From: Gibbula magus
Lineage: Eukaryota; Mollusca; Gastropoda; Trochida; Trochidae
Direction of reading: 5' to 3'
Assembly (NCBI GenBank): GCA_936450465.1
Contig: OW388304.1
Location: 40,982,914 to 41,046,913 of the forward strand
Length of the DNA: 64,000 nt
Positions 16,879 through 50,887 of the stretch are shown one piece after another. Each line of letters opens with the position of its first letter. The first letter of the stretch is position 1. The position numbers and the translations under genes are program-made. The notes beneath the pieces are model-generated. The model saw nothing but the letters and a program-made list of their open reading frames with translations, was not told where the DNA came from and did not search any database.

Positions 16879-18110
16879 CCCAGCAAACAATTTTACGTTG
16901 TCACAACGTTGTGACAACGTTGTCAGAAGGTGTCAGTAACGTTGTTTGCAACGTTGTTTGGACGTTATTTGTAGATTCCTTTTTACGTAATTATAACGTT
17001 ATTTTGTAACGTTACAAAACCAACGTCGTGGCAACGTTAGTTTTAAAACGTTACAAAAACCAACGTCCTGGCAACGTTAGTTTTGTAACGTTATTTGGAC
17101 GTTATTTGTAGATTCCTTTTTACGTAATTATAACGTTATTTTGTAACGTTACAAAACCAACGTCCTGGCAACGTTAGTTTTGAAACATTACAAAACCAAC
17201 GTCCTGCCAACGTTAGTTTTGTAACGTTATTTGGACGTTATTTGTAGATTCCTTTTTACGTAATTCTAACGTTATTTTGTAACGTTACAAAACCAACGTC
17301 CTGGCAACGTTAGTTTTGAAACATTACAAAAACCAACGTCCTGGCAACGTTAGTTTTGTAACGTTATTTGGACGTTATTTGTAGATTCCTTTTTACGTAA
17401 TTATAACGTTATTTTGTAACGTTACAAAACCAACGTCCTGGCAACGTTAGTTTTGAAACATTACAAAACCAACGTCCTGCCAACGTTAGTTTTGTAACGT
17501 TATTTGGACGTTATTTGTAGATTCCTTTTTACGTAATTCTAACGTTATTTTGTAACGTTACAAAACCAACGTCCTGGCAACGTTAGTTTTGAAACATTAC
17601 AAAACCAACGTCCTGCCAACGTTAGTTTTGTAACGTTATTTGGACGTTATTTGTAGATTCCTTTTTACGTAATTCTAACGTTAGTTTTGTAACGTTACAA
17701 AATCAAAGTTCTAGCAACGTTGTAAAACAACGTTCTCTCAACGTCGGAAACCAACATCCCAACAACGTTGGGAACCAACATTTCCTGAACGTTGAAAACC
17801 AACGTCCTCTCAACGTTGTAAACCAACGTCCCCTGAACGTTGTAAAACAACGTTCTCTCAACGTCGGAAACCAACATCCCAACAACGTTAGAAACCAACG
17901 TCCCCTGAACGTTGGAAGCCAACATCCACTCAACGTTGTAAACCAACGTCCCCTGAACGTTGTAGACCAACGTTTTCTCAATGTCGGAAACCAACATCGC
18001 CACAACGTCAGAAACCAACGTCCCCTGAACATCGGAAAACAATGTTTCTTTGGAACCGAACATGCCCTGAAAATAGAAAACCTACATCCCATTAATGTCA
18101 GAAACTAACT
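16879..18110. repeat. Left subterminal ACGTT array
   Basis: After the terminal CCCAGC come degenerate AACGTTGT words, then about five units of roughly 137 bp (landmark ACGTTATTTGGACGTTATTT starting near 17086, 17223, 17360, 17497 and 17634). A zone of shorter units of the type AACGTTGTAAACCAACGTCC follows to about 18060, where the pattern decays. The core AACGTT is self-complementary. Open frames on the minus strand (17695-18092) are periodic by-products. Confidence 0.85.
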
Positions 18111-18849
18111 CCCCTGAACACAGGAAACCTTTAAACTTGTATGAAATGTTTGCTTGCTGAAGTTTTGTTTTTGTAACATGTAACCTCATACATGTTTGTT
18201 TATCTACGATATTCAGTGCATGTTTTGGTACTTATTCGACCATGTATTTTTCATTGACAATTGCCTCTTAGAATCCTACTTAAGGAATTGTTTAGTTAGC
18301 AATCTTGAACATTAGATTCTCTGAAGGATCAATTAAATGTCAGCGGTTTCTAATAGACAATTTGTAAATGAAAAACAAACCCAGTTGGGGCTATTTCACA
18401 AAAGTTTGATTTTCAAATTTCTTCAAACATAACATCAGTATTTAACGATCACCTAAGTTTGATTTGTGAAAAGAGGACAATGGGCACTAGGATAATTTAA
18501 CTTCCAACTCATGCAAAAGAGACATGACAAGTCAGAACCAAAAGTTTATTGCATCGCAGTGTAAATACATATTGTGCACATTAATTTTTCATTTATAAGC
18601 TTGACATGTTAGGTCGCAATTTTGTTAACTGCATGCTTCTTTTCTCCACTAAACAAAGCAGCAGTACGGGACTGGAAGGTTTACAGTTGAATCACCATTT
18701 GGATCTTCATAATACCTGAAATTAGAACAGAAATATAAATATTTCATCTATTAGCAATCAACCATTTGTGATGCGAATCTAAATCTAAAAAATAATTTGA
18801 AGTACTGACACAGGACAAAGGTGTAATAATGCCCGTGGCCTCCGATATC
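18111..18849. other. Non-coding stretch, nothing recognised
   Basis: AT-rich DNA inside the putative giant element; no gene or repeat identified. Confidence 0.4.
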
Positions 18850-20892: not shown

Positions 20893-21530
20893 AATTGCCT
20901 TTTGAATACTAATAAAGAAAGGTAATGGCATTATGGTTGTGTGAAATAGTTTATGTTTTATGGTAAAACAAAATTCTGCTCTTCAACCTTATATAACTTA
21001 ATAATGTAAAGATTAGTTGTCCACCGAAGAGTTACCTCCCTTTGTCAATACTTTTCATAAAAATTCATTTTCAGCATTAAATTACTCATAACGTAGGTCC
21101 GTGACATATATTTTTTATCTTCTGTTATTCTTCAGTGGCGAGTTTTCCACAAGTTATATCATGTTTGAATTATTTTTCATTTATTTTGATTCTTGAACAG
21201 GACTTTTGAAGTTATTTCTACAGAATCCATTGTTGACATTATAGTTTATCATATAAAGGTTAATGAAAAAAAAAACATACAAATTTTAGAAATCACTGTT
21301 CTATTCCAATAACATTCCATTCATGAAAGAAAACAACAATATAGCTCTGAATGAGTGTCATTATTTTTAAAAAGTGACTTTAACAAAATAAAACAAGTTT
21401 GCCATTTTTTTTTAGACATTACCACAAAAAAAACATCATTTTGCACCAAAAAAGGTCCGTAACATGCACTTTTTCTTTTTGAATCTCGAATAAAACATAT
21501 TCCGCTTGCATCATGCCAATTTTAGGGTTG
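20893..21530. other. Non-coding stretch, nothing recognised
   Basis: AT-rich with several A or T runs; no supported feature. Confidence 0.4.
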
Positions 21531-21531
21531 G

Positions 21532-22034
21532 GTACCACGAACATTTCAATACCGCGGTATACCTATTTTTTTGTCCTAGTACCACAGTATTTACCACGAT
21601 ATACCGTGCTTGAAATGAATAGGATCTGGTTATGTATAATATACAGGTAAAATTGTTCCAGATGTCTTTTTATTCAGAACTCAGTATAATAGAACACCAA
21701 AGATGAAGAATTCAAAATAAAATAAAATAATAACTATCATTTCAAGTTTTTCTTAAGGAATATCAGCAGATCAACATGCAACCAATCAGTAAGCAAATTG
21801 CAGACACTTTCATTAGAGATGCATTACATTCAAACTACATGAGATAACAGTTTAAAGAACCATTTAAAGAATAGTTGCTTTTATTAGTAAGATCTTAACT
21901 TTTTCTGACAAAAATCATTCTGAAAAAGGTAAAAAAAAAATTAATTATAAAAACCCCGGTTTTCTCCAACATACCGCGGTACGTACCACTTGATTGAAAA
22001 ACCACGTTATACCGGTAAAACCACCCATCTCTAG
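21532..22034. mobile_element. Element with TAGGGTTGGGTACC / ACCCATCTCTA ends
   Basis: Inverted subterminal blocks ACCGCGGTATAC and ATACCGCGGTACGTACC, with ends of the type TAGGGTTGGGT and ACCCATCTCTA. The arrangement resembles hAT-type MITEs; non-coding. Confidence 0.5.
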
Positions 22035-26520: not shown

Positions 26521-26683
26521 ATACGTCATAAAACAATGGTTTGATGTAGCGAATTGGCTTATTATGTCAAATTGTTTCTGTTGTGACCGGATGTTCCAAG
26601 CGGTCGCTCAACATGAAGGCGTATTAGGATAACATAAAAAAATAAATAGTACGTTTTTGATTAAACGTAATTATTTATACTTA

Positions 26684-26847
26684 CCTGTTGACTAGACCTA
26701 CTTTGCCTTACCTCCCAGGGGTAATGCTATTTCAACCTTAATACAGACGAACTTGAAGAATGGATGAGGGGTGCGTAAAATCCCTTATCCAAGGGCCGGT
26801 AAGTCTAGATGGTCTCGTGACGTCACTACCGGTTCATATCACTCTCC
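26684..26847. repeat. DIRS inverted terminal repeat, 3' side
   Basis: About 164 bp, from TGTTGACTAGACCTAC to ATATCACTCTCC; the inverse, almost base for base, is at 33559-33723. It includes TGACGTCA at 26818-26825. The outer 39 bp (26645-26683) is unique to this end and, on the minus strand, contains CAG|GTAAGT (26687-26679), a consensus splice donor. Confidence 0.93.
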
Positions 26848-26900
26848 GAAAGTCCCAAAGGCAAGACAGACCAAGTGGGGAGGATGGGAGGGCCTAGAGC

Positions 26901-26994
26901 GTAGGTCTAGTCAACAGGTAAGTATAAATAATTACGTTTAATCAAAAACGTACTATTATTTAAATACCTATCTGTTGACTAGACCTACTTTGCC
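26901..26994. repeat. DIRS internal complementary region (ICR)
   Basis: The left half (GTAGGTCTAGTCAACAGGTA, then AGTATAAATAATTACG) is the inverse of the outer left terminus (26645-26700). The right half (TATTTAAATACCTATCTGTT, then GACTAGACCTAC) is the inverse of the outer right terminus (33700-33740). The halves meet at CTATT, shared by both ends. This is the head-to-tail junction expected of a DIRS circle and the bridging template in the accepted model. Confidence 0.92.
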
Positions 26995-27300
26995 TAGAAT
27001 CCCACCGCAAGGAGGCGGGTCAGTAGATACATGGTAGTGACGAGACCAGCGACTAGCCCTGAGTGTAAGCTAACCTACGAGTCCTCCACCCTGTGGTGAG
27101 GACAAGGCACAGCCCGGGAGATACCATCTCTACCGCTAAGCGGATCGAAGAGACAACCCTGCCACTCAACTTCCGATCAACATACCGCCCCCCAAACCCC
27201 AACAGGGAGGGGGGGGTCAAAACGAAGTTAAAGAAAAAACCAACAGACACGAGAGTAAGCAATGTAAACCCTGTTTATTTACAATAAGTCCCAAACGCGT
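26995..27300. other. DIRS 3' untranslated region (minus strand)
   Basis: Lies between the recombinase stop and the ICR. It holds CCCCCC/GGGGGG tracts near 27186-27218 and no further domain. The two short frames here are antisense or shadow frames. Confidence 0.6.
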
Positions 27301-30297
27301 CTAAGAAGGATGACCCCTTCTTGGTCTGGTTGGGGGGACCACCTTCGTCTGCGCGAAGACCTGTGGACCCAGCCTAGAGATGCCTTCAAGATCAGCAGTG
27401 GAGACATCTCGCAGGTAATGGTTGGCGAAAACCTCTGATGAACGCCAAAAACACCCTGCCATGACATCCGAAACCGCGATGTTGCAGAGATACGCCATCG
27501 TGGCTGAAACTGCGCGGATCTCATGAGGATTGGAACGCGACGGCGGAGGCAAATCAGCGGCCTTGTACGCATCAATTACCGCCGATCTTAGATACACCCC
27601 CAACGCTCGCTTGTCTAGTTCCTTGGTGCTCCTGGGTGAGTGAGGCAAGAACAGACGACGCCTGCCATCCCTCAGCCTGCGGGTACGCTGCGTGTACACC
27701 CTTAAGGCTCTTACTGGACACAAAGAGAGATCCACCTCATCTGAGTCCGAACCCAGAGCTGGGATAGAGAACGTACGTCCCGCTTCATCCGCTGCTTGGT
27801 TCTTACAGACAAAATCAGGAGCCAACCCCAGCGAGGCGGAGCCCCCCTCCCTGACCTCAAAACGTAGCAGGTCCGCCTGCAACGCATGGATCTCTGAAAT
27901 CCGCGCCGCAGAGGCCATGGCCACCAGAAAAATGACCTTGATGGTGAGAGGGAGGAGAGGCACGTCGGAGAGCGGTTCATACCTATCGGAGCGCAGGTGG
28001 TTGAGCACAATGGCTAAGTCCCATTCAGGTGGGCGAAGCCTGGACCTGCCGTCCACCGAACGGAAGGTCTTAATTAGGCCCTTGAGGACCGACACATCCA
28101 ATCCTGGCGATCTCTTCCTGAGAACCGACAGGATGGCCGACATGTTGGTGTTAATTGACGACGCCTTAAGATGTCTAGTGTTGCGAAGGTACACCAAGTA
28201 CTCCGCAACCTGAGGCACTGAAGCCTCTGCCGGAATGAAATCCCTCTGAGCACAGAACGAGGCGAAGGCCTGCCACTGGAAATCATAGAGCTTCCTAGTG
28301 GTTTTCCTATGCGAGGTAGCTATTGCGTTGGCGACGCACTTAGAGTATCCACTACTCCTTAGCCCTCTTTTAATACAAGCCAAGCGTGAAGGGAGAACAC
28401 CTGAGGGTTCTCGTGTAACCTTCCGCTTGGCCTGCTGATGAGCAGATCCCTCCGTATCTGAATCGGAACCGGTTCCTGCCGACAGAGCCGACGGAGAGGA
28501 ACGAACCACGGCCGGGCTGGCCACCAAGGGGCGACCAGCAGGAGACGAAGAATCCGAGTTTCCCCTATCTTGGCTACAACTTGGGAGAGGATGGCCGGCG
28601 GCGGAAAAGCATAGGCGTCCATCCCCTCCCACCCTAATGAGAGCGCGTCTAAGCCCATCGCTAGCGGGTCTGGCACTGGGGAGATGTAAGTTTGCAATTG
28701 GTGGTTGAGACACGTCGCGAACAGATCTATCAGCGGGGTGCCGAACTGGAGACACAACCCCCTGAAAACCACCGGATTCAGTTGCCACTCCGTTGGGGGA
28801 GGGGCATCCGGACGTGACAACACGTCCGCCAAGACGTTCTTGGCACCTGGAATGTGGACCGCTCGAATGTCCAGGTCCACCTCGTCCACCAACTCGAAGA
28901 GCTGGAGTGACACGCGTAGCAGAGACTGTGCCTTGGTGGACCCCTGCTTGTTTATCGACCAAGCAGCCGCCGAACTGTCCGTGTGTACTAGCAGGCACTG
29001 GCCCCTCAAGGGGACCTGCCAGTGCTGAATGGCAAGACGTACTGCGTCCAACTCGAGGACGTTGATGTGTAGGTTCCGCTCTGATGGGGACCAAACTCCC
29101 GCCACCTGTTCGTGACTCATGTGCGCTCCCCACCCTTGGGTGGAGGCGTCTACAAACAGGTGAGCTGAGGGGGGGCGAGGACGAAGTGGAACGCCTGCGA
29201 ACACACTCTCGTCTACCCGCCACCAAGCTAGGAACCGATGTAGGTCTGGGGTTAAGACTATGTCGTGACGACAACGCGTCTCCCTGATGTGGGGATTCAG
29301 GAACACCTGTAACGGGCGAAGGAACAACCTCCCCCTGCGGGTCAGGTCCTGAGCTGACGTTAATAACCCCAACACTCTTTGCCACTGACGTAGGGAGAGC
29401 GAGGCATCGAGCGCGCGATCCATAAGGCGATCGTAACGAGCCATCCGCTCCCTCGTGACGAAACCGCGGAACAGCCGGGTGTCTAGGATAGCCCCTAGGA
29501 ACTTCAGACGCGTTGCCGGAACCAAGTCCGACTTCTCTAAGTTCACTAGCCACCCCAGACGACGGAACAGGTCCATCGTGAACCTGAGCTGCGCCTCGAG
29601 AACGACCGGGGAGCGGTCGTGAGCGATCCCATCGTCCAAGTACATTAGGAACTGAATGTCGCATTGGTGAAGGAATTGGACGATGGGCTGAGTCACCCGT
29701 GTGAATAACCAGGGGGCGGACGAGATCCCGAACGGGAGCACGCACCACTGAAAATGTCTGCCGTCCAGGATGAAGCGGAGGTACCTGCGGTCCCGATAGT
29801 GAATCGGCACGTGCAGGTACGCATCCTGTAGATCGAGAGACACCATGCAGTCTGAGCGCTCCAAGGACCGCATCACTGAGGGAAGCGTCAAGAGTCGAAA
29901 ATATGGCGGCCGAACGAGGAAGGAGCGGTTGAACACCTTCAAATCGTGAATTAGCCGCCATTTTTTCGAGTTCCTTTTGGGTATTACGAACACTGGGGAG
30001 TAAAACCCCGGCGTTAGATGCGGGGTCAGGACCTCCTGCACCGCCCGTTTGGAGATTAATATCTCCACCTGTTCCAATGTCAATTTGAGCCGGTCCCCTG
30101 CTAAGGGACGCTCCATTGGAGTACAGGTGAGGGGCGGCGGAGACGAGACGGGAATGCGGAACCCCTGACCCAGAATCCGACACACGTAAGGGTCTAACAC
30201 TAACTGTACCCAGTTGCTGACAAAGTCTTGGAGGCGACCCCCCACCAAGCCCTCCGACACCGGAACGAGTGGAGGAGGGAGCAGCGGGGGTGACCAC
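27301..30297 (-). CDS. DIRS tyrosine recombinase ORF (long overlapping frame)
   Basis: A 998-codon open frame of which only about the last 350 codons are recognisable. They hold a core-binding region (TSHRKTTRKLYDFQWQAF, near residue 670) and the catalytic domain with R799 (AARISEIHAL), H925-x-x-R928 (HEIRAV), W951 and the nucleophile Y961 (NHYLRDVS). Known of the family: tyrosine recombinases cut and rejoin DNA through a 3'-phosphotyrosine, and DIRS elements use one in place of a DDE integrase. The first 646 codons lie over the RT ORF in another frame and are Pro/Ser/Arg-rich with no domain. The frame begins with GTG, and is in frame with Gag immediately after a single TGA (30301-30303). Read-through, splicing or internal initiation could express it; the true N-terminus is unknown. 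Confidence 0.9.
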   Translation of the reverse strand: MVTPAAPSSTRSGVGGLGGGSPPRLCQQLGTVSVRPLRVSDSGSGVPHSRLVSAAPHLYSNGASLSRGPAQIDIGTGGDINLQTGGAGGPDPASNAGVLLPSVRNTQKELEKMAANSRFEGVQPLLPRSAAIFSTLDASLSDAVLGALRLHGVSRSTGCVPARADSLSGPQVPPLHPGRQTFSVVRAPVRDLVRPLVIHTGDSAHRPIPSPMRHSVPNVLGRWDRSRPLPGRSRGAAQVHDGPVPSSGVASELREVGLGSGNASEVPRGYPRHPAVPRFRHEGADGSLRSPYGSRARCLALPTSVAKSVGVINVSSGPDPQGEVVPSPVTGVPESPHQGDALSSRHSLNPRPTSVPSLVAGRRECVRRRSTSSSPPLSSPVCRRLHPRVGSAHESRTGGGSLVPIRAEPTHQRPRVGRSTSCHSALAGPLEGPVPASTHGQFGGCLVDKQAGVHQGTVSATRVTPALRVGGRGGPGHSSGPHSRCQERLGGRVVTSGCPSPNGVATESGGFQGVVSPVRHPADRSVRDVSQPPIANLHLPSARPASDGLRRALIRVGGDGRLCFSAAGHPLPSCSQDRGNSDSSSPAGRPLVASPAVVRSSPSALSAGTGSDSDTEGSAHQQAKRKVTREPSGVLPSRLACIKRGLRSSGYSKCVANAIATSHRKTTRKLYDFQWQAFASFCAQRDFIPAEASVPQVAEYLVYLRNTRHLKASSINTNMSAILSVLRKRSPGLDVSVLKGLIKTFRSVDGRSRLRPPEWDLAIVLNHLRSDRYEPLSDVPLLPLTIKVIFLVAMASAARISEIHALQADLLRFEVREGGSASLGLAPDFVCKNQAADEAGRTFSIPALGSDSDEVDLSLCPVRALRVYTQRTRRLRDGRRRLFLPHSPRSTKELDKRALGVYLRSAVIDAYKAADLPPPSRSNPHEIRAVSATMAYLCNIAVSDVMAGCFWRSSEVFANHYLRDVSTADLEGISRLGPQVFAQTKVVPPTRPRRGHPS

Positions 30298-30437
30298 GAG
30301 TCACTTCCTCCACTTCTTTTGCGGGGTACGACCTCCGGCGCCAGGCCGGGGGGACTTGGGGGACTGACCCGTGGATCCACGGCCACGACCTCCCCGCCGA
30401 AAGTCCGTTTTCGCTTTCTTGGGGGAAGGTTGGCCAC
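28359..30437 (-). CDS. DIRS reverse transcriptase - RNase H ORF
   Basis: 692 codons counted from a GTG; the frame is open from about 30548 and has no ATG until 30116. Reverse transcriptase spans about residues 145-330: PVFVIPKR, the first catalytic Asp in SLDLQDAY (D202), WCVLPFGISSAPWLF and YLDD at 266-269. RNase H spans about 425-545: D430 (LFVDAS), E462 (LELDA), D487 (VHTDSSAA) and D538 (ADVLSR). Residues 565-650 (PLIDLFAT, DAYAFPP, APWWPARPWF) match the conserved tail of DIRS RT proteins, where a Dam-like methyltransferase region is reported; its NPP-type motif here reads FPPP, so activity is doubtful. The frame is +1 relative to Gag and overlaps it by up to 248 nt, so frameshifting or re-initiation is needed. 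Confidence 0.95.
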   Translation of the reverse strand: MANLPPRKRKRTFGGEVVAVDPRVSPPSPPGLAPEVVPRKRSGGSDSWSPPLLPPPLVPVSEGLVGGRLQDFVSNWVQLVLDPYVCRILGQGFRIPVSSPPPLTCTPMERPLAGDRLKLTLEQVEILISKRAVQEVLTPHLTPGFYSPVFVIPKRNSKKWRLIHDLKVFNRSFLVRPPYFRLLTLPSVMRSLERSDCMVSLDLQDAYLHVPIHYRDRRYLRFILDGRHFQWCVLPFGISSAPWLFTRVTQPIVQFLHQCDIQFLMYLDDGIAHDRSPVVLEAQLRFTMDLFRRLGWLVNLEKSDLVPATRLKFLGAILDTRLFRGFVTRERMARYDRLMDRALDASLSLRQWQRVLGLLTSAQDLTRRGRLFLRPLQVFLNPHIRETRCRHDIVLTPDLHRFLAWWRVDESVFAGVPLRPRPPSAHLFVDASTQGWGAHMSHEQVAGVWSPSERNLHINVLELDAVRLAIQHWQVPLRGQCLLVHTDSSAAAWSINKQGSTKAQSLLRVSLQLFELVDEVDLDIRAVHIPGAKNVLADVLSRPDAPPPTEWQLNPVVFRGLCLQFGTPLIDLFATCLNHQLQTYISPVPDPLAMGLDALSLGWEGMDAYAFPPPAILSQVVAKIGETRILRLLLVAPWWPARPWFVPLRRLCRQEPVPIQIRRDLLISRPSGRLHENPQVFSLHAWLVLKEG

Positions 30438-32094
30438 TGCCCTGCCCTTGCCCCTGACGAAAATTGGTCTGCGGACGCTTTGGTGTCGTTTGCCTCTGCG
30501 TGACGAGCCGATTAGTGAGGTCTTGCTGTTGGGCCTCCTGTCGTGCTCTCAAAACCTCCGGGATACGACCACCAAACAGAGTTTCAGCGTGAGCAGGGGC
30601 ATGTCGAAGGAAGTTCTTATGATCTGGGTTGAGACCTGACCGGTAGAGGAAATTGTCTCTGCGAAGCACTGTTATACTCGATGAAATCCGCGACGCTGAT
30701 AACATGATCTGCGCAAGGTCCGCAGCCACATCACCAAACGCTTTGAACAACACCGGGTCCCCCGCCTCCATGCCCGCCTGCTTAGCACAAGCCAGCATCG
30801 CCTGACATGTGAAAGCCACGTTGTTCCCCAAGCCTAACACCGAACGCGCCTCCCTGTCAAGATGAGAGAACTGTGCCTCAGACACGCGGTGAAGCAGGTT
30901 GGTGGTAAACAACCGGGACGCCCCCTGATCAAGGGGAGGCGGAACAAGCTGAAAAGGGACCGGATACAAGGGCAGACGCCGTCTGCGCTTGTCCGGCACC
31001 ACCAAAGGCGGAAGCAAACGATTGGGCATCGCAGATGATACGACTTGCTCCATATCCTCGGTGGCCTCCAAAAGAAGCCTATGAGGTGGAAGGGCAAGAC
31101 GCGCGGGAGGTACCTCGCCATCGGGGCCAAAGGAAGCCCTCCTGGCCGCCGACGTGCGCGGACCCGTCACGCTGACTTGGCTAAGTGGAACGTCCGCGAA
31201 CGAAGCCACTTCGGATAGCATAGCTATTGCGTCAACCACTGGAGGATCCTCCGACGATCCCGTACCCTCCGCCTCCGTTTCTATACTGATGAACGGAGGG
31301 TTCGACACGTCCACGTAACGGGTGTCACGTTCCGGTGAGTCCGGCGAGGAGTCACGTAAGGGTGACATCACCGTGACACGCCGCTCCGGGGTGCGAGGGG
31401 TACGCGAAGGAGTCGCGGGTGCGGAGGCCCTAGCGGACGAGGAACGCGCACCCTGAGGTACGTCATCCGCATAGGGCTCACACGATCGCGTAGTCGTAGT
31501 GTGAGTAGGTAAGTTCCGCGGACCCAAACGCGCATCGAGCAAGGAAGAGACCATATCCTTGACGGATGCCAGAAGGAGGGAAGGATCGACCTTGTCGAAC
31601 CTAGCCTTCTTGGACTTCTTCTTCTTGCTCTTGGGCGTAGCAGGTCCGCCCACCTTAAGTCTAAGCGGAGACAACCGTTGGTCCGGCGAAGGAGGGGACA
31701 ACGGGTGAGTCCGCGAACGAGAACCGGAACACGACGGCGGAGGGGGGGAGCGTAACTTCGACCCCCCAGCGGGTTCGGACAGGTCCGATTCCCTGTCGAA
31801 TTCATCCGCCCGTTCCGTGAGGACAATGTCAACATCCTCCACCGGAGACGGATGACGAATGGGAGACACCTCCCTACGTTGAGCTGACGACGTACGCTTC
31901 TGTGACGCAGCCCTATCGGCCACCGACTTGCGTATGGCGGAAACGTACGCGAGGAACTCCGATTCGGAGAGAGGAGCGCACTCGTCGCAACGGTAATCCT
32001 CTTCGCAAAGGTCCTTGCACTTTCTGCATAACAAGTGCGGATCCTTAGAGGCGGACTTCCTGCCTCCGCAGTTCGTGCAGAAGGCGGAGTACAT
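30301..32094 (-). CDS. DIRS ORF1, Gag-like protein
   Basis: 597 residues from the ATG at 32094; an upstream GTG would add 19 residues without a domain, so I prefer the ATG. The N-terminus has a compact Cys cluster, C6-x2-C9, C23-x2-C26, C30 and C36-x2-C39, probably zinc-binding. A long Ser/Pro/Arg-rich linker follows, with a basic patch PKSKKKKSKKARF (possible nuclear signal). A hydrophobic helical region (about 440-500: LGLGNNVAFTCQAMLACAKQ and following) may mediate assembly. The C-terminus is Gln/Gly/Arg-rich with RRGGRGRGS, as in nucleic-acid-binding tails. It ends WRK then TGA followed by CTC, directly in frame with the recombinase ORF. The name Gag-like rests on position and composition. 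Confidence 0.85.
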   Translation of the reverse strand: MYSAFCTNCGGRKSASKDPHLLCRKCKDLCEEDYRCDECAPLSESEFLAYVSAIRKSVADRAASQKRTSSAQRREVSPIRHPSPVEDVDIVLTERADEFDRESDLSEPAGGSKLRSPPPPSCSGSRSRTHPLSPPSPDQRLSPLRLKVGGPATPKSKKKKSKKARFDKVDPSLLLASVKDMVSSLLDARLGPRNLPTHTTTTRSCEPYADDVPQGARSSSARASAPATPSRTPRTPERRVTVMSPLRDSSPDSPERDTRYVDVSNPPFISIETEAEGTGSSEDPPVVDAIAMLSEVASFADVPLSQVSVTGPRTSAARRASFGPDGEVPPARLALPPHRLLLEATEDMEQVVSSAMPNRLLPPLVVPDKRRRRLPLYPVPFQLVPPPLDQGASRLFTTNLLHRVSEAQFSHLDREARSVLGLGNNVAFTCQAMLACAKQAGMEAGDPVLFKAFGDVAADLAQIMLSASRISSSITVLRRDNFLYRSGLNPDHKNFLRHAPAHAETLFGGRIPEVLRARQEAQQQDLTNRLVTQRQTTPKRPQTNFRQGQGQGSGQPSPKKAKTDFRRGGRGRGSTGQSPKSPRPGAGGRTPQKKWRK

Positions 32095-32310
32095 GGCGAA
32101 CGGTAACGATAAAACGCGTAACGTAAGCGAAGGTAGAGACAGTCGAGTCACCTACACGGCGTCGCAACAAAAACTCTGAACTCGAAGAGCACAAAGTCAA
32201 AATCAAGTAACCACCCGCCAAGGTAAACAAAGACGAACAAGCCAAACCAAAAAATAGGCTAAACACTAACAAGATAATTCAATCTTTATTCACATAACAT
32301 TCGTGCGTGA
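32095..32310 (-). promoter_or_regulatory. DIRS leader immediately upstream of Gag
   Basis: Untranslated leader on the minus strand between the tandem repeats and the Gag ATG. No TATA box is obvious here; the best TATA-like word of the element is TATTTAAATA at its extreme 5' end (33727-33737). Confidence 0.4.
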
Positions 32311-32314
32311 ACCA

Positions 32315-32578
32315 AACCTTAAGTGACTGGCGTAGCGAGTCACTTGAACCAAAGTGAGTCACCCTAAGGGTGAGTCACGTATAATCGACCTAAGTCGAAC
32401 CAAACCCTAAGCGACTGGCGTAGCGAGTCACTTGAACCAAAGTGAGTCACCCTAAGGGTGAGTCACGTATAATCGACCTAAATCGAACCAAACCCTAAGT
32501 GACTGGCGTAGCGAGTCACTTGAACCAAAGTGAATCACCCTAAGGGTGAGTCACGTAGAATCCACCTAAGGCGAATGG
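32315..32578. repeat. 88-bp tandem repeat in DIRS leader, three units
   Basis: The GTGACTGGCGTAGCGAGTCA landmark begins at 32323, 32411 and 32499. Each unit carries AAAGTGAGTCACC and GGGTGAGTCACG, so five TGAGTCA words remain intact across the array (one is mutated in unit 3). TGAGTCA is the AP-1/bZIP consensus; an enhancer-like role is inference. Confidence 0.85.
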
Positions 32579-32599
32579 TAGGCGAAAGCTAGCAACGGG

Positions 32600-33295: not shown

Positions 33296-33558
33296 AGAGA
33301 AAACAAAGAATCACGAGCTGCACGTGCGGCGCATGCAATCCACCTACTCCGGATGGTCGCTAGCTAGCACATGTCAACAAGGCCCCTTGAAATCTAACAC
33401 CTACTTGAAAAACAGATTGTAAACACAACCTGCACTAACGAAGAACAACGTTGATGATATCTCTTGAACTAACAAGAGAAAAATAGCAAGTTAGCAACCC
33501 AAGTCGCTAAAACCCCAGTCACAGAACAAAACACGTCTGCCTTGCTCTGCAACTTTTA

Positions 33559-34466: not shown

Positions 34467-34568
34467 TCCTTACATTCCACCTGATGAAGAATTGAGTATA
34501 CACTCTGAGACATCGCGTATTTTCAGATTAAAGAAGTTATTATCCAGAAAATCTTCCTGTTCTTACAT
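34467..34568 (+). repeat. Decayed Penelope hammerhead arm
   Basis: Matches the right arm at 22915-23013 (TACATTCCACCTGATGAAG, then AGAAGTTATTATCCAGAAAA), but the ribozyme core reads GAGACATC where GAAACGTC is needed and stem II is mismatched. Probably inactive. Confidence 0.65.
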
Positions 34569-37300
34569 ACCACCTGGTGACCATGCAAACTGTACACACT
34601 TGTCAAACGTGATGTGTTTTTCAGTTACACCTATATGTGAACAGGATACAGAGCACAGGCTGACCACATTATTTCATTTCATTATGATATTTCCCTTATT
34701 GAATATTAAAAATAAAAGTTTTCAACCAGCTTTTCAATAGATCACCAATAACTTGAAACATGGACAAAGTAGCAAACTGTAAACTCCATTGTACACACAT
34801 ATCTTAATCAATAGGCCAACTCATAAATTTCCATTTTGATTTGACGTTTGTCATGTTGACTTTTTTTAAAAACTTTTCGCACTAAAGTCGAGATGATAAC
34901 CTAATATATGTCATACTGGAATGATAGCGAGTAAATTTTAATTTGAAATTAAGCGAATGCATAACAATGTCGTGGAATTGATTGTTTGTATGTTCAGAAT
35001 CACCGTGCATGTGGCGATCTTTCAATATGTATACAAGAGGGCAGACGTGCATCAGTCCGTGTGAAATTATTATTTATGGTTGCGAAGTTGCCTCAATTGT
35101 TATAAGTATTGCAGTGAATTACAGTTTTCTCCTGACCTATTATTAGCTAAATAGTTGCATTTGTACATTTTGCTGTTCTTTGTTTCATCGTTATTCAACA
35201 TCATGACAGCAATTCTATTAACTCAGGAACTAATGTCATAGGATATCGTCTGTAAACTTTTACATTTCGACTTCTCCTCCAGAACTGCATGCTGTACTTC
35301 CAAAGCGAGAATATAATGGGAGGGAACCTTTATCGGAGCAGCATTTACATCAGCAACTTTTGCTTGTTTTCCAATCCCGATTTTCATTTTCATGGAAAAA
35401 AATATGTTCAAACCAAATATAAGGGCGTGACAAGGGCTAGATGTCAAAGAAGTGTATCGATTTAAGTGAGTGAGTGAGTTAGTGAGTTATTGTTTAACGC
35501 CGCTTCCATATCGATTTAAGGACAATGGTGAAATATTCAATGCAATGATCATATTGTTATGATAAACAGCATTCAAACGAGCCCAAAATCAAGTCTGTAA
35601 ATCCAATATTAAGGGAAATAGAGCAATACAATAAATATTATCCAATGATCTATCTCGCCACTATTTATTTGAGTAACTGATGTCACAGTGATGTGTGAAG
35701 ACCAATGCTGACCTATGTGTAATGCCTGAGTTACACCAATATGGTTCTCACTACGTTCTACTCAATCCAAAACTTATTGTAAAACGATCTCGAACGGGAC
35801 AGAAACGGGAAACTTTTGTACATAATTTTCCAGTACGATCCAGTACGTTTACAGTCAGTTCTCAGGAAGTCCATCTAGTCTTTATACCCCGTCCAGTTGG
35901 TACCACGTTTAGATGGGATAGTGTTGCTCGTTTATTACGTTTTCAATCATTTCAATCCCGTTATCAGTCAATTTATATCAGTTCTCAACTAGACCTATCT
36001 CCACATCATACACGTTGCGAGAAGAATCATTCATGTTGACAGTTTAGGTTATTTTTATTGAAAACTGTTGTCGACACATGTTCAAATGGTAGACCCACGG
36101 GAAGCAGAGTGAATATTTTAAGTTTAATCCCTTTGATCTCTGGAAATGTGATTTCAAGGGATTAAAATAGTGGGTAATAGGAAAAGTTGGAATTCGAAGT
36201 GAATAAAGGTTTCAGATTTTTAGTTTCAAGTGTATTTGGATGGATCGAATAATACATATAGGCCTATTATCAATAAACTATCAGAAAGAACTTTTATATA
36301 ACAATATGCATATTATCAGTAGTATGTAGGATGAGATGAGTTGTGGTCATGGTGAAACTTGTTTGAACTCAAATAAGAAAGCAGGTTGGTACATGTCGTA
36401 TTGTTTGGTTTTTGTTTAATGATTTGAAAAGTCTAAACTTTCTACTTACTTACAACCGTTGGGGAAAACAATTCACTGACCGCATGCATGCTCAATCACT
36501 TTATTGTAGTTGCAATTGAGAAGTATTTAATTCTGCGCTTGTGCTATTTCTAGGACTGGTGAAAGTTTTTCTCACTGGTATTTGTTGGGAAATTTCGTTG
36601 CATGCCACAATAATGTTCCGGCATTCGGTAAACGTTATACTTTTTGAAAGAACTAAGCCTTCATTTTCATGTAATGCTTTCAGCACACGTAGCACTAAAG
36701 TACTTTAAAAAATTCTAGACAATTTTTATCGACATCAAATAAGTCTAATCAATATATCGAGATAAAGAAATATATGTCAACTCGTCCAACATCTAACTAA
36801 TCTACTCTGTCGTGAATTGCACTGTTATATCACAAGAAACGTCTTTCTACAGTTAAAAATACTAAAATTCAACTACTTACCTCTTAATCTTAGTGTCAGA
36901 GAATTATTTTCGGTAGGATCGGCAACAATTCAGTTAATGTAATTGTATTGTTTCCAAACTAATTAATTGTATTGATATATTCAAAATGTGTGTTAATGAT
37001 TTTGTTGATATCACTGTTTGTAAAAGGTTTTATAGCATTCTATCAATGGTATATGTTTCAATGCATAACATTTTATTATTCACTTTCTGCAATTGAAGCC
37101 TATACTAGTTTAATTTAATTTACTTATAAATAGTTTGTGTTCAATTCCAGCAAGGAATTAAATCCCTATCCTGACTTCAAATTTAAATTTCTCTGTGATC
37201 AAACACGTGATACACAAATAGATTAATAAGTGCAAAGAACAAAACAGACCGTTTCAGAACTAATTAATAGGGCGCAGCGCAACGCAGCGCAACGCAGCGT
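34569..37300. other. Mostly unassigned AT-rich DNA
   Basis: One SINE-core scrap occurs at 35467-35515 (GAGTGAGTGAG, GTTTAACGCCGCTTCC). The 114-codon open frame at 35695-36039 has no recognisable domain. Positions 37262-37300 repeat GCAGCGCAAC. Confidence 0.4.
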
Positions 37301-39960
37301 ATTGCTATAGCTTGTACTTTCAGAAATAACGAACCCAGTTTGGAATCAGCCTTCACGTGTTAAGATTTGCCCCGACCCCATGGTAACGTCGATTCGCGTC
37401 AACCGCGTCGCCCCCACTCCTATTCTTGGTGTGCATCTCTTACAGAAAAATTGCAAAATTACCTTGGTACAATGAACTTTTATGATAGCAGCACAAATTA
37501 AATTTAGGCTAATGTAGACGCTTCGCCACCACACTTAGACTTGATCAAGCGTTAAACATAATTCTATTTGGAATGGTAGTCACGTGATTAACAATATCAT
37601 ATGGATAGGAAGTGATCGCGCAACCTGTGCCAATGTAGCGCAGCATAGCGCAGCGTAACTAGCCCAGGGAACCAGGTTGGTGATCGCGGGACGTGAATGT
37701 TTTTTTTAACCAGCCGTGTTTTCCAAAATTATCGAGGATGAGCAAGATTCAACAAAGTTGCATATGCATGTAAAATTGTAAGACCTACGACATTAAAGGG
37801 TCAACCTTCATACCCCTTTTCGACCGCATATATCCCAATTTAATCACAAAGTACATGTAGGCCTAGTAAGTGTGGATATAGGAAAACAACTTACCTTTCC
37901 TGTAATGTCTGTTTTTATCCTGATTAAGTGGCTCCTTCTTCTCAGGACAGAATGGAATTTGGCTCAAGATAATTTTACTTGCCCTTTATTACCATATTTA
38001 AATATAACATCGATAAAAATTACATTTTGTTTGTATCTAGTGATTTCAGTTTTGAGATTTTCTTCACGTACTTCAGTACTGCTTGCGCTTTTTTTTGGAC
38101 GAAACGAGTGACACAATGCAGAGAAGATCGGTCGCAGTGTAAATTCAGCCTTTCAATGAAAATCACCTCTCAGATGTTTGCAAGCTTAGCAAACTTTAAA
38201 AACCCAAAATGCGTGAACAATGTATCTTTCTGTTTAAAACATAGTTGTCGTTTTCTGATTTCATCTTGCTGCCCATTTCTTCAGTATGACGTTGCAACAA
38301 TGTTGAACTAATTTGTAAATAACTCTCACTCAGAGCAGCCATGTGCATGTTCATATGTTACATAAAACTTGGCTTCAGTTGAATATAGAATATTATAATG
38401 CCTGAACACCTTCCCATTTTATTCTTACATTTTCGTTATTTTTACAAACGATTGTTTAAACGTGTTTGTTTTATTTTCATTATATCATCTCGAGATGAAT
38501 AGTTATATATAGACGCCTTTTTCTGGAAGTCTAAGATGGCTAGACTATAACTTACGACATAGCCTAGACTACAATTAAGTCTCTGAAATGATATATAGGC
38601 TCTTACGGAGAGATGGACGATGAAATGAAATATTTTAGAATTCGCTTATTTTTTCAGATACTACTTTATCACATACATGTATGCGGATACAAAGCAAGTT
38701 TAAATTTTGAAAGTTAATGACACTAGTACTGTTAAATGTAATAAAATGAGATTAAGCAGTTTTTAAATAAAAATGGCATTTTATCATCGTTTTTCGCATA
38801 TTCAACAGGATTTCTCACTGACACACATATTTTAGATATTGCTAAAACGTTAACATGGTGTGCGCAGTTGTATAAGCAAACAAATTCAGAAATAATAATA
38901 GGGGGTCACAGAACGTTTTTCATCACTTAAACCTCATTTTTTAAATCACCTACATAAACGTAAAAACCTTACGTCACGGCAGTTTTGATAATTTCAAATG
39001 TAACTTTGACGGCCTATTGTGTAATTATTATCGAATATACTATCAATATACGAGTGCTTAATGGAACAACAACTACCAGTTTATTATACAAGGCGATTTA
39101 TATTCATCACTTACTGGAGATATGTACGTAATTGAAATAACACACATGGTCACATATATAGCTGCGAATATAGGTGATGGCAACGACATGCGGCATGTCG
39201 TAAAGTTGCCGTTAAAAAGGCGTTGCAGCAATGCAATGTTAAGCGCTTTCCGTTAGTTAATTGATCTATGCTTAAACAAATGTAATGCATATATTTTAAG
39301 ATTCATTTACAACAATAGATTGTTTCGCAAAATGTTACCGTAAGTGAATTCAATTTCTTCGTCCCATCTCTAGACATAAGCTACCAAAAGCGTATTTTTA
39401 GATTTTGTCTGTAAATAAGCGTAAAAATGAGTGTATTGATTTAAAAAGAATCAAATATAAATTGGTTTAGTAACCATGTGCTCGTTTTTAAGTTAAACAA
39501 TTAAAATTAGAATTGGTGTTACGTAATAGTTTAATTAAGTTTCTTCATTAATGAAAACGACAAGTAACATGTAACCACCTTTACATGAATCAACAGATCG
39601 CTTACTTTGCCTTTTATAATAATGTATGTTATATTTAAACTTAAAAGTCTTTGCCCTATAAAAGCTAATGAATGAAAGAGCGATAATAATGTACCAACAG
39701 TGCACAGTGCCTTTATATAAAATAACTTGTAGTTTGTTTTTGGTCGCAATTGCTAAGTTACCTGTATATAATAGTAACACAATTTTGACACGGTAACGAG
39801 ATCTGGAACAATGTTCCTGATTCGTAGCTGTGTGCTGTGTTTTACATAGAACCGGTATAAAAGCGCTCCAATATGTTGATTTGAATTGATTCCTTTTTAC
39901 TCCTTTGTTTGTAGCATAGAACATTAGAATTATCAATCACACCTCGATACATGATCAATT
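37301..39960. other. Unassigned AT-rich DNA
   Basis: Positions 37337-37400 are the inverse relative of 33900-34000, so an unrecognised element may span about 33.9-37.4 kb. Nothing else is supported; short frames at 37872-38311 and 39531-39936 have no domain. Confidence 0.35.
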
Positions 39961-44192: not shown

Positions 44193-44702
44193 TTAAAGGT
44201 GCATCCATTGTGTTTCATAAAATTTTATTTGGCTTTAATTAATACGTTCCAACACATCATATGTGTTGTTTACAATACAAACACATTCACTCGGCTTGAA
44301 TATTCATCCCCAATCGCCAAACATATCATAATTACTAGTTTCCAATTAAAATCGAGTAACATCATTATGCATGTGCAGAAACCGAAAGTGCACGTTCTAT
44401 TTACATGCAAAGTAGTTATATGACCTATTGGACATTATCAACCCAAATTTGTTATGTTGTCTGGTTTAAATAAGATTCCAAAATTACGTTTGAGTCATTG
44501 GCGCGCGCCACAAGCTGTGCATTGTCCGGTTTTCGATCAGAAATTGATACTTTTACCTTCATATCGTCAATATACTAAGTCGAGTATCATTAAAATGGTA
44601 GTTTTCGGTAACAGTTGGTACTTCTCGATGAAATTATTAATAAGACCATATATAACGTTTGCCATGTTTTACCCCAAACAACACAATGGATGTACCTTTA
44701 AA
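44193..44702. mobile_element. Family A TIR element, direct copy
   Basis: Complete: begins TTAAAGGTGCATCCATTGTG and ends ACACAATGGATGTACCTTTA + A, with GGCGCGCGCC inside. One of the best-preserved copies beside that at 2411-2908. Confidence 0.85.
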
Positions 44703-47343: not shown

Positions 47344-48829
47344 AGGTAATCCTCAGTGAGATAATCACTGTTAAAATGCCTATATTGACGCAACTTGTTT
47401 CTCCCATTTTGTGTAGTTTCAAACTGAACATGGTTACCCCACTCAGCTTTCTGAACAGTTCCAGAAAGAAGGCGTATTTCAATATAACTTTCTAGATTAT
47501 ACATGTGATAGACTGTGCTTATTCATAAACGCTGCAATCATGTTGGTCCGAGTTGCGTTAACATGTTGTAGGAGTCCATGTGAAAACAGTCAAAACACGT
47601 CTCTTGATACGATTACAGTGATTATTCTTGAAACGGGTCCTTTCCCCGTCATTATAACGTCATGTCCATGCTGTATTGTTATTGTTACGGTTTAAATGTA
47701 AATTGGGAAAGTTAACGTGGTTTCAATATAGATTGATAAATTTGAAATGATACGTTTGTTTAAAACAAACCTCAATAATGTTGCTGTTTCGCGATACAAA
47801 GGCATAGTGTTGCTTAGTTATGACATTATAATAAATACATACAATTAATGTGTACCTTATTACTTTTACAATAAAATGCTTATGTGCAAACCTACGGGAA
47901 ACGTCAACGGAATTGTCAAAGGGGCGATAATTTTGATATTTTAACGCGCTTCACTAAATAGGTTAACAATGAAACATCTCTGAAGATATCTCTGACTGCA
48001 TATTTTAACGGTCATACAGCATCCAAAAAATTAAATTAAATATATTCGGATGTACTTTTGTCTGAATATATACATTGAAAATTAGACATTGACATTTTAG
48101 TACAACATTCATTTTATGAATTCATGGTCATGTTTTCTTTTCAGTCAACATTATATAAACCTGATTTAGTTTGAGCACAATCCACTATTTATTCTTTTAA
48201 AATAATCTTAACAGTAGTTGATATTTACTTTATATTTATGTTCAGGGAACGATTTTTCATTTGCCAAAATATCGTTTTATGTCACCTGATGTCACATTAT
48301 GAATGGACAAATCAAGGGTTGCACATGATCTGTGTCGGAAAGCAAACAGAGGATATAAAAGACATTGCGTGATTTTTGTCTAAAAGCTGCATATAGTTAT
48401 TTTTCATGATTTATTATTAATAAAATATTTTTAAAAAATACTTAGTTAATCTACTTTTAGCTTTGTTTATGTGAAACGTACATGTGAGCGTGTAGCCCGG
48501 TCCGTATTTGTAAAATAAGCCTCCAATTAAAGTCTGTTTGATTTTATCAATTATTTAAACACAATATAATATCTAAACTGAATATGTAAACTTGTAAACA
48601 CCGTGAGAAGAGAAATACAAGCCAGTCGTATAGGATATATGCCAGGAGAGAAATGAAACATTAGTTAGCAATGAGCATTCATTAGAATACATACATAAAC
48701 ATATGGTTAGGGCTAGATAAGAAAGGTTGACTTATCAACACGTGTACTTTGTTCATAACTCTTAATCTAACGAATTTAATATAAAACGCTCTTATGACGT
48801 TGTGCTAAACTTAACCTAACCTAATATAA
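47344..48829. other. Non-coding stretch, nothing recognised
   Basis: AT-rich DNA leading into the right satellite array; no gene or known repeat. Confidence 0.4.
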
Positions 48830-50887
48830 CCAATGCACAACGTTGGATTGACGTTTGAATTTGTCATTGGAATACAACGTCCTTCTGACGTTGTAGGAAC
48901 GTCGGCTTTAATCCTGACCATTCACAACGTTTTCTTGACGTTGACGTTTGTGTTTCAACGTTGTATTCACGTCCTCATGACGTTGTAAGAGCGTTGGTTT
49001 TTAACCCTGACCAATTCACAGCGTTGTAAATACGTTGTATTTTAACGTTGTATTTACGTTAGAATTAGACGTTATAATACAACGTACTTATGACGTTGTT
49101 AGTACGTTGGTTTTTAACCTAACCAATGTACAACGTTGTATTGACGTTGTGTTTCAACGTTGTAATGACGTTTTAATAAGACGTTCATATGACGTTGTAG
49201 TAGCGTTGGTTTTTAAACTTACCAATCAACAACGTTGTAATGACGTTGTGTTTCAACGTTGTATTGACGTTAGAATGCAACGTAAGAATACAACGTTCTA
49301 ATGACGTTGTAGGAACGTTGGGTTTTAACCTAACCAATGTACAACGTTGTATTGACGTTGTGTTTCAACTTTGTAATGACGTTTTAATAAGACGTTCATA
49401 TGACGTTGTAGGAGCATTGGTTTTTAAACTTACCAATCAACAACGTTGTAATGACGTTGTGTTTCAACGTTGTATTGACGTTAGAATGCAACGTAAGAAT
49501 ACAACGTTCTAATGACGTTGTAGGAACGTTGGGTTTTAACCTAACCAATGTACAACGTTGTATTGACGTTGTGTTTCAACGTTGTAATGACGTTTTAATA
49601 AGACGTTCATATGACGTTGTAGGAGCGTTGGTTTTTTAACTTACCAATCAACAACGTTGTAATGACGTTGTGTTTCAACGTTGTATTGACGTTAGAATGC
49701 AACGTAAGAATACAACGTTCTAATGACGTTGTAGGAACGTTGGGTTTTAACCTAACCAATGTACAACGTTGTATTGACGTTGTGTTTCAACGTTGTAATG
49801 ACGTTTTAATAAGACGTTCATATGACGTTGTAGGAGCGTTGGTTTTTAAACTTACCAATCAACAACGTTGTAATGACGTTGTGTTTCAACGTTGTATTGA
49901 CGTTAGAAGGCAACGTAAGAATACAACGTTCTAATGACGTTGTAGGAACGTTGGGTTTTAACCTAACCAATGTACAACGTTGTATTGACGTTGTGTTTCA
50001 ACGTTGTAATGACGTATTAATAAGACGTTCATATGACGTTGTAGGAGCGTTGGTTTTTAAAATAACCAATCAACAACGTTGTAATGACGTTGTGTTTCAA
50101 CGTTGTATTGACGTTAGAATGCAACGTAAGAATACAACGTTCTAATGACGTTGTAGGAACGTTGGGTTTTAACCTAACCAATGTACAACGTTGTATTGAC
50201 GTTGTGTTTCAACGTTGTAATGACGTTTTAATAAGACGTTCATATGACGTTGTAGGCACGTTGGTTTTTAACCTAACCAAACAACAACGTTGTAATGACG
50301 TTGTGTTTCAACGTTGTATTGACGTTAGAATGCAACGTAAGAATACAACGTTCTCATGACGTTGTAGGAACGTTGGTTTTTAACTGAACCTATTCACAAC
50401 GTTGTATTGACGTTGTGTTTCAACGTTTTATTGACGTTAGAATTGGACGTTAGTATACAACGTCCTAATTACGTTGTAAGAACGTTGGTTCTTAACCTAA
50501 CCAATTCACAACGTTGTATTGACGTTGTGTTTCAACGTTGTTTTGACGTTAGAATAAGACGTTAGAATACAACGTCCTTCTGACGTTGTAGGAACGTTGG
50601 TTTTTAACCTAACAAATTTACAACGTTGTAATGACGTTGTGTTTTAACGTTATATCGACGTTACAATACAACGTTAGAATACAACGTCCATATGACGTTG
50701 TAGGAACGTTGGTTTTTTACCTAACCAAGTAACAACGTTCTATTAACGTTATTTTGTGACGTTGTCTGGACGTTACATGAAAACGTTGGCTCTCCAACGT
50801 TGTAGCAACGTCATAATAACGTTAGAATAAAACGTAACCAAACCATAACGTTGCTATAACGTTGTTCAACGTTGTTTGTTTGCTGGG
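48780..50887. repeat. Right subterminal ACGTT array (211-bp units)
   Basis: Degenerate AACGTTGTATTGACGTTGTG words start near 48830. From about 49140 to 50360 they form five higher-order units of 211 bp (ATGACGTTGTGTTTCAACGT landmark at 49240, 49451, 49662, 49873 and 50084), 97-99 percent alike by eye in places. Order then decays and the array ends AACGTTGTTTGTTTGCTGGG. The near-identical plus-strand frames of 88-91 codons are by-products of the period. Confidence 0.9.

What the first reader, a model, noticed from the sequence alone, without database searches (positions are those of the whole stretch)
16879..50887. One 34-kb insertion with CCCAGCAAACAA ends splits a lectin intron
The two inverted 12-bp ends are flanked by complementary halves of one family B element: AACGTGCT on the left and CTACTGCCCC on the right, with CT (or GCT) duplicated. 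Beyond it the intron sequence continues where it stopped: GTCAAAGAAGTT at 16575 and GGTGTTTCGATGTTCC at 50903 are consecutive in the homologous blocks at 12900 and 16450. This is direct evidence for a single giant transposon-like unit with satellite arrays inside both ends and no recognised transposase. I know of no described family with this combination.
Basis: partly seen in the sequence, partly recalled or inferred. Interest (0 to 1): 0.9.

Follow-up and report, generated by a model that had tools for sequence, protein, structure and literature searches.

The report
Giant gene-less transposon with satellite ends
A roughly 22-kilobase piece of DNA with no detectable gene, bounded by matching ends and long repeat arrays, sits at dozens of places in this genome with the small target duplications of a jumping element, and is likely moved by an enzyme encoded elsewhere that would have to handle far larger cargo than such elements usually carry.

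Summary
The 34,009-bp unit at 16879-50887 has inverted CCCAGCAAACAA ends, a CT target duplication, and splits the 3' repeat of a small 'B' element that is uninterrupted in three other window copies. The right-end sequence occurs 84 times in the genome (reversed control 0). On contigs C1-C6, 27 of 32 right ends face an exact CCCAGCAAACAA within 50 kb (wrong-strand control 0). All 40 scored hits (of 242 candidates) of an internal piece lie correctly oriented to 40 different right ends. Six copies read in full share the core, with indels; five differ from the window copy by 1.0-1.4%, one by 2.8%. The unit is about 22.5 kb; four further insertions, one a DIRS retrotransposon, inflate the window copy. 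Nineteen of 21 copies have exact 2-bp duplications. Six-frame Pfam scans of one copy's core found no significant domain; codon positions show no constraint. A gene-less 3.7-kb family shares the ends and duplications. I conclude this is a giant non-autonomous DNA transposon whose AACGTT arrays likely serve as multiple transposase-binding sites. No helper was found; the superfamily is open.

The parts
16877..16878 (.). left copy of the 2-bp target-site duplication (CT)
50888..50889 (.). right copy of the 2-bp target-site duplication (CT)
16879..16890 (+). left terminal inverted repeat CCCAGCAAACAA (L-type end, followed by TTTTACGTTGTCACAACG)
50876..50887 (-). right terminal inverted repeat CCCAGCAAACAA (R-type end; other copies mostly read CCCAGCAAACAGACAACG)
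16879..18050 (+). left satellite array: 44 AACGTT in 1,172 bp; 787-1,308 bp long in six other copies
48900..50887 (-). right satellite array (211-bp higher-order unit): 56 AACGTT in 1,988 bp; 1,454-1,975 bp in five other copies and about 2.6 kb in copy A, where the inner boundary was set more loosely. Array-like repeats start near 48830
18051..48899 (+). core of the giant element, interrupted by further insertions; shared with all six fully read copies, with indels (five at 1.0-1.4% divergence, one at 2.8%). 40059-40938 differs locally between copies, and about 1 kb present in copies B, C, E and F is missing near 23210 in the window copy and D
21523..22033 (.). 511-bp insertion with 8-bp duplication GCCAATTT; absent from the six copies
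26650..33731 (-). nested DIRS-like retrotransposon (RT and RNase H; a weak integrase-type SAM match below its cut-off; 175-bp inverted repeats); absent from the six copies
33949..37376 (.). 3,428-bp insertion with 11-12 bp duplication and imperfect inverted ends; no Pfam domain; absent from the six copies
44202..44694 (.). insertion of a roughly 500-bp inverted-repeat element common in the window; absent at this place from the six copies
16576..16878 (+). left part of the split B element (small inverted-repeat element with TTAA ends)
50888..50902 (+). right remnant of the same B element, CTACTGCCCCTTTAA
52580..52768 (+). C-type lectin domain exon downstream of the insertion
   Evidence: Pfam PF00059 E 1.2e-6, profile 38-107 (translation)

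Best explanation
This is one copy of a family of about 22-kb DNA transposons that have short inverted ends, satellite arrays inside both ends and no detectable gene, and that are likely cut and pasted in trans by a transposase, not yet identified, which would bind the arrays. Shown: the ends, the arrays, exact 2-bp target duplications in 19 of 21 copies, the empty site, at least 40 copies holding a core piece at the right orientation to an R end, absence of detectable coding, and a second gene-less 3.7-kb family with the same ends and duplications. Inferred: a DDE-type enzyme making a 2-bp staggered cut; recognition of the AACGTT repeats as many weak binding sites that help bring ends 22 kb apart together; copying of the whole unit by gap repair or replication-timed jumps. 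The window copy landed in the end of a B element beside a C-type lectin exon and was likely hit afterwards by a DIRS-like retrotransposon and three other insertions.
For: Empty site and CT duplication, with right-flank alignments above all 2,000 shuffles on both blocks. The end-plus-AACGTTG pattern gives 104+245 matches against 0+2 for the reversed control (one end can give several matches). R end at 84 places, control 0. 27 of 32 R ends on C1-C6 have a facing exact CCCAGCAAACAA within 50 kb, 14 of 27 at 21.0-22.8 kb; wrong-strand control 0, random placement mean 0.13, maximum 3. 40 of 40 scored core hits (242 candidates) are correctly oriented to 40 distinct R ends, 24 of them at 13.9-15.2 kb. 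Six copies read in full, chosen for lengths of 21.1-22.7 kb, have the same core order. Variants shared by sister copies (43 for B+F, 21 for window+D; other pairings shown at most 4) run along the whole core, so the unit is copied whole. Exact 2-bp duplications in 19 of 21 giant copies against 0-2 of 21 at six shifted offsets, and 9 of 9 scorable small-family copies. In 18 frames of one copy's core the best Pfam match has E 0.035 and none reaches its curated cut-off, while the same method finds RVT_1 in the nested DIRS-like element. Variable sites by codon position 180/174/174 in 45 ORFs. AACGTT sites: 44 left, 57 right, 10 elsewhere in the window copy; 3-4 at one end and 8-9 at the other in two 3.7-kb copies. 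A 13.9-kb copy lacks about 11 kb internally but keeps both ends and a TA duplication, as interrupted gap repair would give, although a deletion after insertion is also possible.
Against: No helper transposase was found: two long relatives of the 3.7-kb family carry unrelated extra sequence in the parts read, and a search for ends reading CCCAGCAAA[not C] found one place, not examined further. Five of 32 R ends on C1-C6 lack an exact partner. Two of 21 copies do not show the 2-bp duplication: one has TTAT (4 bp), one has no matching 2 bp. Only 40 of 242 candidates for the core piece were scored. The copies are not identical in layout: indels occur, including about 1 kb present in B, C, E and F but not in the window copy or D. 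The genome-wide L-end count did not complete. The role of the arrays is untested.
Confidence: 0.8

Rival explanations
1. The giant element is autonomous: its core encodes a divergent transposase in many short exons that Pfam and ORF length do not reveal.
For: Roughly 19 kb of core is kept across copies; introns would hide ORFs; a new superfamily could lack a Pfam model.
Against: The longest non-satellite ORF in six copies is 170 aa, ORFs across fetch borders being cut. No significant domain in six frames of one copy. Variable sites in 45 ORFs fall evenly on the three codon positions. The 3.7-kb family with the same ends is gene-less too (five of six frames).
Confidence: 0.12
2. It spreads by a replicative route (copy-out, or self-synthesis as in Polintons) rather than cut and paste, with replication supplied in trans.
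For: A 22-kb unit copied whole to dozens of sites is unexpected for cut and paste, whose efficiency falls above about 6 kb (review PMC6431247, passages read).
Against: Short inverted ends with a near-constant 2-bp duplication are typical of DDE cut-and-paste elements; Polintons make 6-bp duplications (PMC10045372, passages read) and encode PolB and integrase, neither detected here. An internally deleted copy with intact ends fits gap repair.
Confidence: 0.15
3. The two ends belong to two separate insertions, or the copies are segmental duplications, and the 34 kb between them is ordinary host DNA.
For: Parts of the interval resemble repeats found outside it in the window, such as B-like pieces and the 500-bp family.
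Against: Exact rejoining of one B element; different flanks with 2-bp duplications in 19 of 21 copies; conserved collinear core with ends at a recurring distance.
Confidence: 0.02
4. Assembly artefact: repeats collapsed or mis-joined.
For: No reads were available; tandem arrays are prone to error.
Against: Twenty-one loci on several long contigs have their own flanks, 19 with a 2-bp duplication, and the seven copies compared have private substitutions.
Confidence: 0.01

Closest known systems
Galileo / Foldback-type elements (P superfamily, Drosophila)
   Same: Long, internally repetitive ends that vary in length between copies; non-autonomous copies common. In Galileo the tandem repeats hold further binding sites for the transposase's THAP domain (PMC3688188 abstract; PMC3573991 passages).
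   Different: Galileo TIRs are up to about 1.25 kb and mostly flanked by 7-bp duplications; here duplications are 2 bp, the two arrays are not clean inverted copies of each other (local score 63 against 57 in the other orientation), and the core is about 19 kb without detectable coding.
MITEs and other non-autonomous TIR transposons
   Same: Inverted ends, target duplications, no gene, presumed movement in trans.
   Different: Those are typically under a few kb (recalled); here the unit is about 22 kb.
Pack-MULEs
   Same: Non-autonomous cargo between TIRs moved in trans.
   Different: Reported Pack-MULEs did not exceed 7 kb (PMC6431247, passage); MULE duplications are 8-11 bp (recalled).
Polinton/Maverick and Teratorn
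   Same: Giant TIR DNA elements of the same or larger size (PMC6431247).
   Different: They encode PolB, integrase and virus-type genes, or a piggyBac transposase plus herpesvirus genes; here no coding was detected and the duplication is 2 bp.
Helentron-type satellite carriers of oysters (Cg_HINE)
   Same: Short satellite arrays dispersed by a non-autonomous mobile element.
   Different: HINEs show no target duplication and insert at T-rich sites (PMC7492417 passages); here there are inverted ends and 2-bp duplications, with arrays at both termini.
ISL2EU / PHIS superfamily
   Same: 2-bp duplications occur (ISL2EU, AT).
   Different: ISL2EU uses A|AT|T (PMC4482050 passages); here duplications are TA, AT, AA, TT, CT, TG, CA, CG and AC.

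Membership tests
non-autonomous TIR DNA transposon (class II) | inverted terminal repeats at both ends | tested here: met
   12-bp inverted ends in the window copy; ends face each other in 27 of 32 R-end cases on C1-C6
non-autonomous TIR DNA transposon (class II) | constant-length target-site duplication | tested here: met
   2 bp in 19 of 21 giants and in 9 of 9 scorable small copies
non-autonomous TIR DNA transposon (class II) | empty site | tested here: met
   three uninterrupted B elements in the window; these are paralogous, not orthologous, sites
non-autonomous TIR DNA transposon (class II) | no transposase of its own | tested here: met
   no significant Pfam domain in 18 frames of one copy's core; codon positions even. 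An unmodelled spliced gene is not excluded
non-autonomous TIR DNA transposon (class II) | autonomous partner with the same ends | tested here: inconclusive
   none found; the search is incomplete because many genome searches did not complete
Polinton/Maverick | PolB and retroviral-type integrase genes | tested here: not met
Polinton/Maverick | 6-bp duplication | tested here: not met
   2 bp; the 6-bp rule is from PMC10045372
Helitron/Helentron | no target duplication, no TIR | tested here: not met
   both are present
Tc1/mariner | TA duplication | tested here: not met
   TA in 6 of 19 2-bp duplications
ISL2EU | AT duplication within A|AT|T | tested here: not met
   AT in 3 of 19; rule from PMC4482050
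piggyBac | TTAA duplication | tested here: not met
   none of 21 copies has it
P superfamily (Galileo) | 7-8 bp duplication | tested here: not met
   the 7-bp figure for Galileo is, 8 bp recalled
CMC (CACTA/Mirage/Chapaev) | 2-4 bp duplication | tested here: met
   2 bp; range quoted in PMC4482050
CMC (CACTA/Mirage/Chapaev) | CAC... termini (recalled) | tested here: not met
   termini are CCCAGC

The most novel reading that the evidence does not exclude
The ends belong to an undescribed superfamily of DNA transposons with 2-bp, sequence-tolerant target duplications, in which satellite arrays act as long-range synapsis platforms, so that 20-kb gene-less cargo is moved and amplified as efficiently as a short element: a natural escape from the cargo-size limit of cut-and-paste transposition, and a machine that seeds satellite arrays across a genome.
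Probability: 0.35. Interest if true: 0.85.

Novelty: new variant of a known kind. Interest (0 to 1): 0.72.

Why it matters
Cut-and-paste transposition is reported to lose efficiency above about 6 kb of cargo, and reported Pack-MULEs stay within 7 kb (PMC6431247, passages). A gene-less unit of about 22 kb with 84 right ends in the genome, and 0.75-1.40% divergence between six of the seven copies compared, shows that a eukaryotic genome can amplify giant non-coding DNA between TIRs. The contrast with the 3.7-kb sibling family, which has the same kind of ends but about 8-9 times fewer AACGTT sites near them, makes the idea that end arrays permit long cargo directly testable. The family also gives a clear route by which satellite-type arrays are scattered through a genome.

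Tried and rejected
Autonomous helper: two long relatives of the 3.7-kb family (C7:60.45 Mb and C7:9.12 Mb) were partly read (L080, L081; about 1.6 kb of the extra part of the second was not fetched). The parts read are unrelated to each other and begin at slightly different places of the small element; L080 holds gypsy-like RT/integrase coding (judged by eye), L081 no ORF over 185 aa. Ends reading CCCAGCAAA[not C] with AACGTTG arrays: one place, not examined further. The same ends in IMG/VR and in GTDB genomes: none. End sequences in papers: 379 papers hold one of four 10-mers; by title none of the 40 listed is about these ends. AACGTTGT-type words gave no relevant title (15 of 705 listed). 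Six phrases for giant non-autonomous DNA transposons: 0 papers; a broader combination: 0. One search listed one review on transposons becoming tandem repeats, not opened. These searches cover open-licence PubMed Central only; Repbase and Dfam could not be searched.

First-reader duplication 'CT (or GCT)': GCT rejected. Two-insertion and segmental-duplication readings rejected. CCCAGCAAACAA pairs 1,955 bp apart at C1:50.27 Mb and C4:2.24 Mb point outwards; the C1 pair has no AACGTT array within 1.5 kb (L004 and L005), so it is not a pair of ends. The C4 pair was not opened.

My one search printed a list of 20 duplications that wrongly counted C3:22.8 Mb as AT; one search supersedes it. In one search two R ends (C2:73133598 and C2:73141202) share one partner, so its 27 pairs use 26 distinct partners. 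Two of the pairs (C2:73.14 Mb, C5:65.58 Mb) were left out of the duplication count because a call takes 20 regions.
Full report
Observation. The window lies in an unnamed assembly of 1.47 Gb in 140 contigs, a eukaryote by its gene and repeat content. The two 12-bp ends at 16879 and 50887 are the only exact copies in the window; with 2 mismatches allowed the count (7) is at chance level, so the argument rests on the junctions. Removing the 34,009 bp between them, plus one CT, restores the 3' terminal repeat of a B element; three other B elements in the window are uninterrupted at that point. Beyond the B element, the right flank aligns to two homologous blocks with scores above all of 2,000 shuffles each; on the first block it starts 39 bp after the scored left-flank alignment ends. 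A C-type lectin exon lies downstream at about 52580-52768. Scans of 12000-16878 and 59000-63980 found no domain, so the upstream exon was not located; 1-12000 and 56000-59000 were not scanned.

A family in the genome. CCCAGCAAACAA occurs 129+118 times against 38+43 for the reversed pattern. CCCAGCAAAC with AACGTTG within 30 bases gives 104+245 matches against 0+2 (one end can give several matches). Two end types recur: L, CCCAGCAAACAATTTTACGTTG, and R, CCCAGCAAACAGACAACGTTG. The R end with up to 3 mismatches occurs 84 times, control 0. On C1-C6, where both printed lists are complete, 27 of 32 R ends have a facing exact CCCAGCAAACAA within 50 kb (26 distinct partners). Spans run from 13.9 to 37.5 kb, 14 of 27 between 21.0 and 22.8 kb. 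The wrong-strand control gives 0 and random placement a mean of 0.13, at most 3. A 1.57-kb internal piece matched 40 scored places out of 242 candidates. Each of the 40 lies in the right orientation to a different R end, 8-37 kb away, 24 of them at 13.9-15.2 kb.

The unit is about 22.5 kb. I read six copies, chosen for lengths of 21.1-22.7 kb, stretch by stretch. All carry the window copy's core in the same order, with indels. Four window segments are absent from all six: 21523-22033 (8-bp duplication), 26650-33731 (a DIRS-like retrotransposon), 33949-37376 (11-12 bp duplication) and 44202-44694. Together they are 11.5 kb. Conversely about 1 kb is present in copies B, C, E and F but not, near 23210, in the window copy or D. 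Substitution divergence from the window copy is 1.0-1.4% for five copies and 2.8% for copy A. Shared variants group B with F (43 sites) and the window copy with D (21 sites); the other pairings shown have at most four each. Both sets run from one end of the core to the other. So each copy descends as one long molecule. A 13.9-kb copy, read in part, lacks about 11 kb of core but has both ends and a TA duplication.

Target duplications. Of 21 giant copies examined, 19 have exact 2-bp duplications: TA 6, AT 3, AA 3, TT 2, and one each of CT, TG, CA, CG and AC. One copy has TTAT and one has no matching 2 bp. The same test at six shifted offsets gives 0-2 of 21. The base after the duplication on the right side of the element is G in 13 of 19, a mild preference.

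No gene. The longest non-satellite ORF in six copies is 170 aa (ORFs across fetch borders are cut). In six-frame translations of one copy's core, stops read as X, the best Pfam match has E 0.035 and none reaches its curated cut-off; the same procedure finds RVT_1 at about 1e-23 in the nested DIRS-like element. Twenty conserved ORFs gave only matches below cut-off, the best at E 0.012. Variable sites fall 180/174/174 on the three codon positions of 45 ORFs. Rfam at gathering thresholds finds only a tRNA at 62470, outside the element.

A sibling family. Elements of 3.7 kb with CCCAGCAAACACACAACGTTG and CCCAGCAAACAAAATAACGTTG ends are also gene-less (five of six frames of one copy were scanned). 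Among 40 scored of 440 candidates, 14 are full-length at 94-100% identity and four shorter ones are at about 76% over most of their length. Nine of nine scorable copies have 2-bp duplications; a tenth was dropped because one end reads CCCAAC, and its flanks also read TA/TA. The two families share little besides the ends, as expected if one enzyme serves both. Two small copies have 3-4 AACGTT at one end and 8-9 at the other; the window giant has 44 and 57, with 10 between.

Mechanism. Inverted ends, near-constant 2-bp duplications and whole-unit copying point to a DDE-type transposase acting in trans. That step is inferred: no helper was found. The arrays likely hold many binding sites. The precedent is Galileo, where tandem repeats inside the long TIRs carry further binding sites for the transposase's THAP domain (PMC3688188, abstract). 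I propose that these arrays let ends 22 kb apart find each other. This would explain why the giant family has arrays of 0.8-2.6 kb while its small sibling does not. It is untested.

Comparison. A review of giant eukaryotic transposons (PMC6431247; passages) says that DNA transposition loses efficiency above about 6 kb of cargo, that reported Pack-MULEs do not exceed 7 kb, and describes giant DNA elements (Polintons, Teratorn, enlarged CACTA) that carry several to many genes. Polinton, Helitron, Tc1/mariner, ISL2EU, piggyBac and P-type membership each fail on the duplication or the genes; CMC fits on duplication length but not on termini (membership table). Ten paper searches listed no paper that, by title or the passages I read, describes such an element; most listed papers were not opened. 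Repbase and Dfam were not available.

Verdict. It is a copy of a family of giant, gene-less, probably trans-mobilised DNA transposons of unassigned superfamily, which I did not find described.

Noticed in passing
window 26650-33731: Nested DIRS-like retrotransposon with GC 49-60% over most of its length against about 35% around it, 175-bp inverted repeats at 98% and long open frames; absent from six other copies of the host element.
   Followed up: partly
window 33949-37376: 3.4-kb insertion with an 11-12 bp duplication (CCATGGTAACG) and imperfect inverted ends containing AAATCTTAACACGTGAAGGCTGAT; no Pfam domain in six frames; possibly a Mutator-like element.
   Followed up: partly
window 13489-13829, 54188-54534, 56172-56540: B elements: roughly 340-bp inverted-repeat elements with TTAA ends and a 25-bp terminal repeat.
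   Followed up: partly
window 2411-2912, 13867-14161, 18851-19317, 44193-44705, 46840-47346, 57419-57809, 61551-61887: A roughly 500-bp repeat family recurs seven times in the window at about 70-90% identity, inside and outside the giant element.
   Followed up: no
G000 C6:62.87 Mb and C11:50.92 Mb (L096-L097, L100-L101): Two 3.7-kb elements sit in opposite relative orientation at nearly the same TATA-rich site of what looks like one repeat family, a possible insertion hot spot.
   Followed up: no
G000 C3:22837120-22858903: Giant copy with a variant L end (AATTTAACG) and a 4-bp TTAT duplication instead of 2 bp.
   Followed up: no
window 15279-16271 and 10891-11061: Inverted repeats left of the insertion: arm pairs of 255 nt (90%) and 180 nt (95%), and a 171-nt arm matching at 97% some 4.2 kb upstream.
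   Followed up: no
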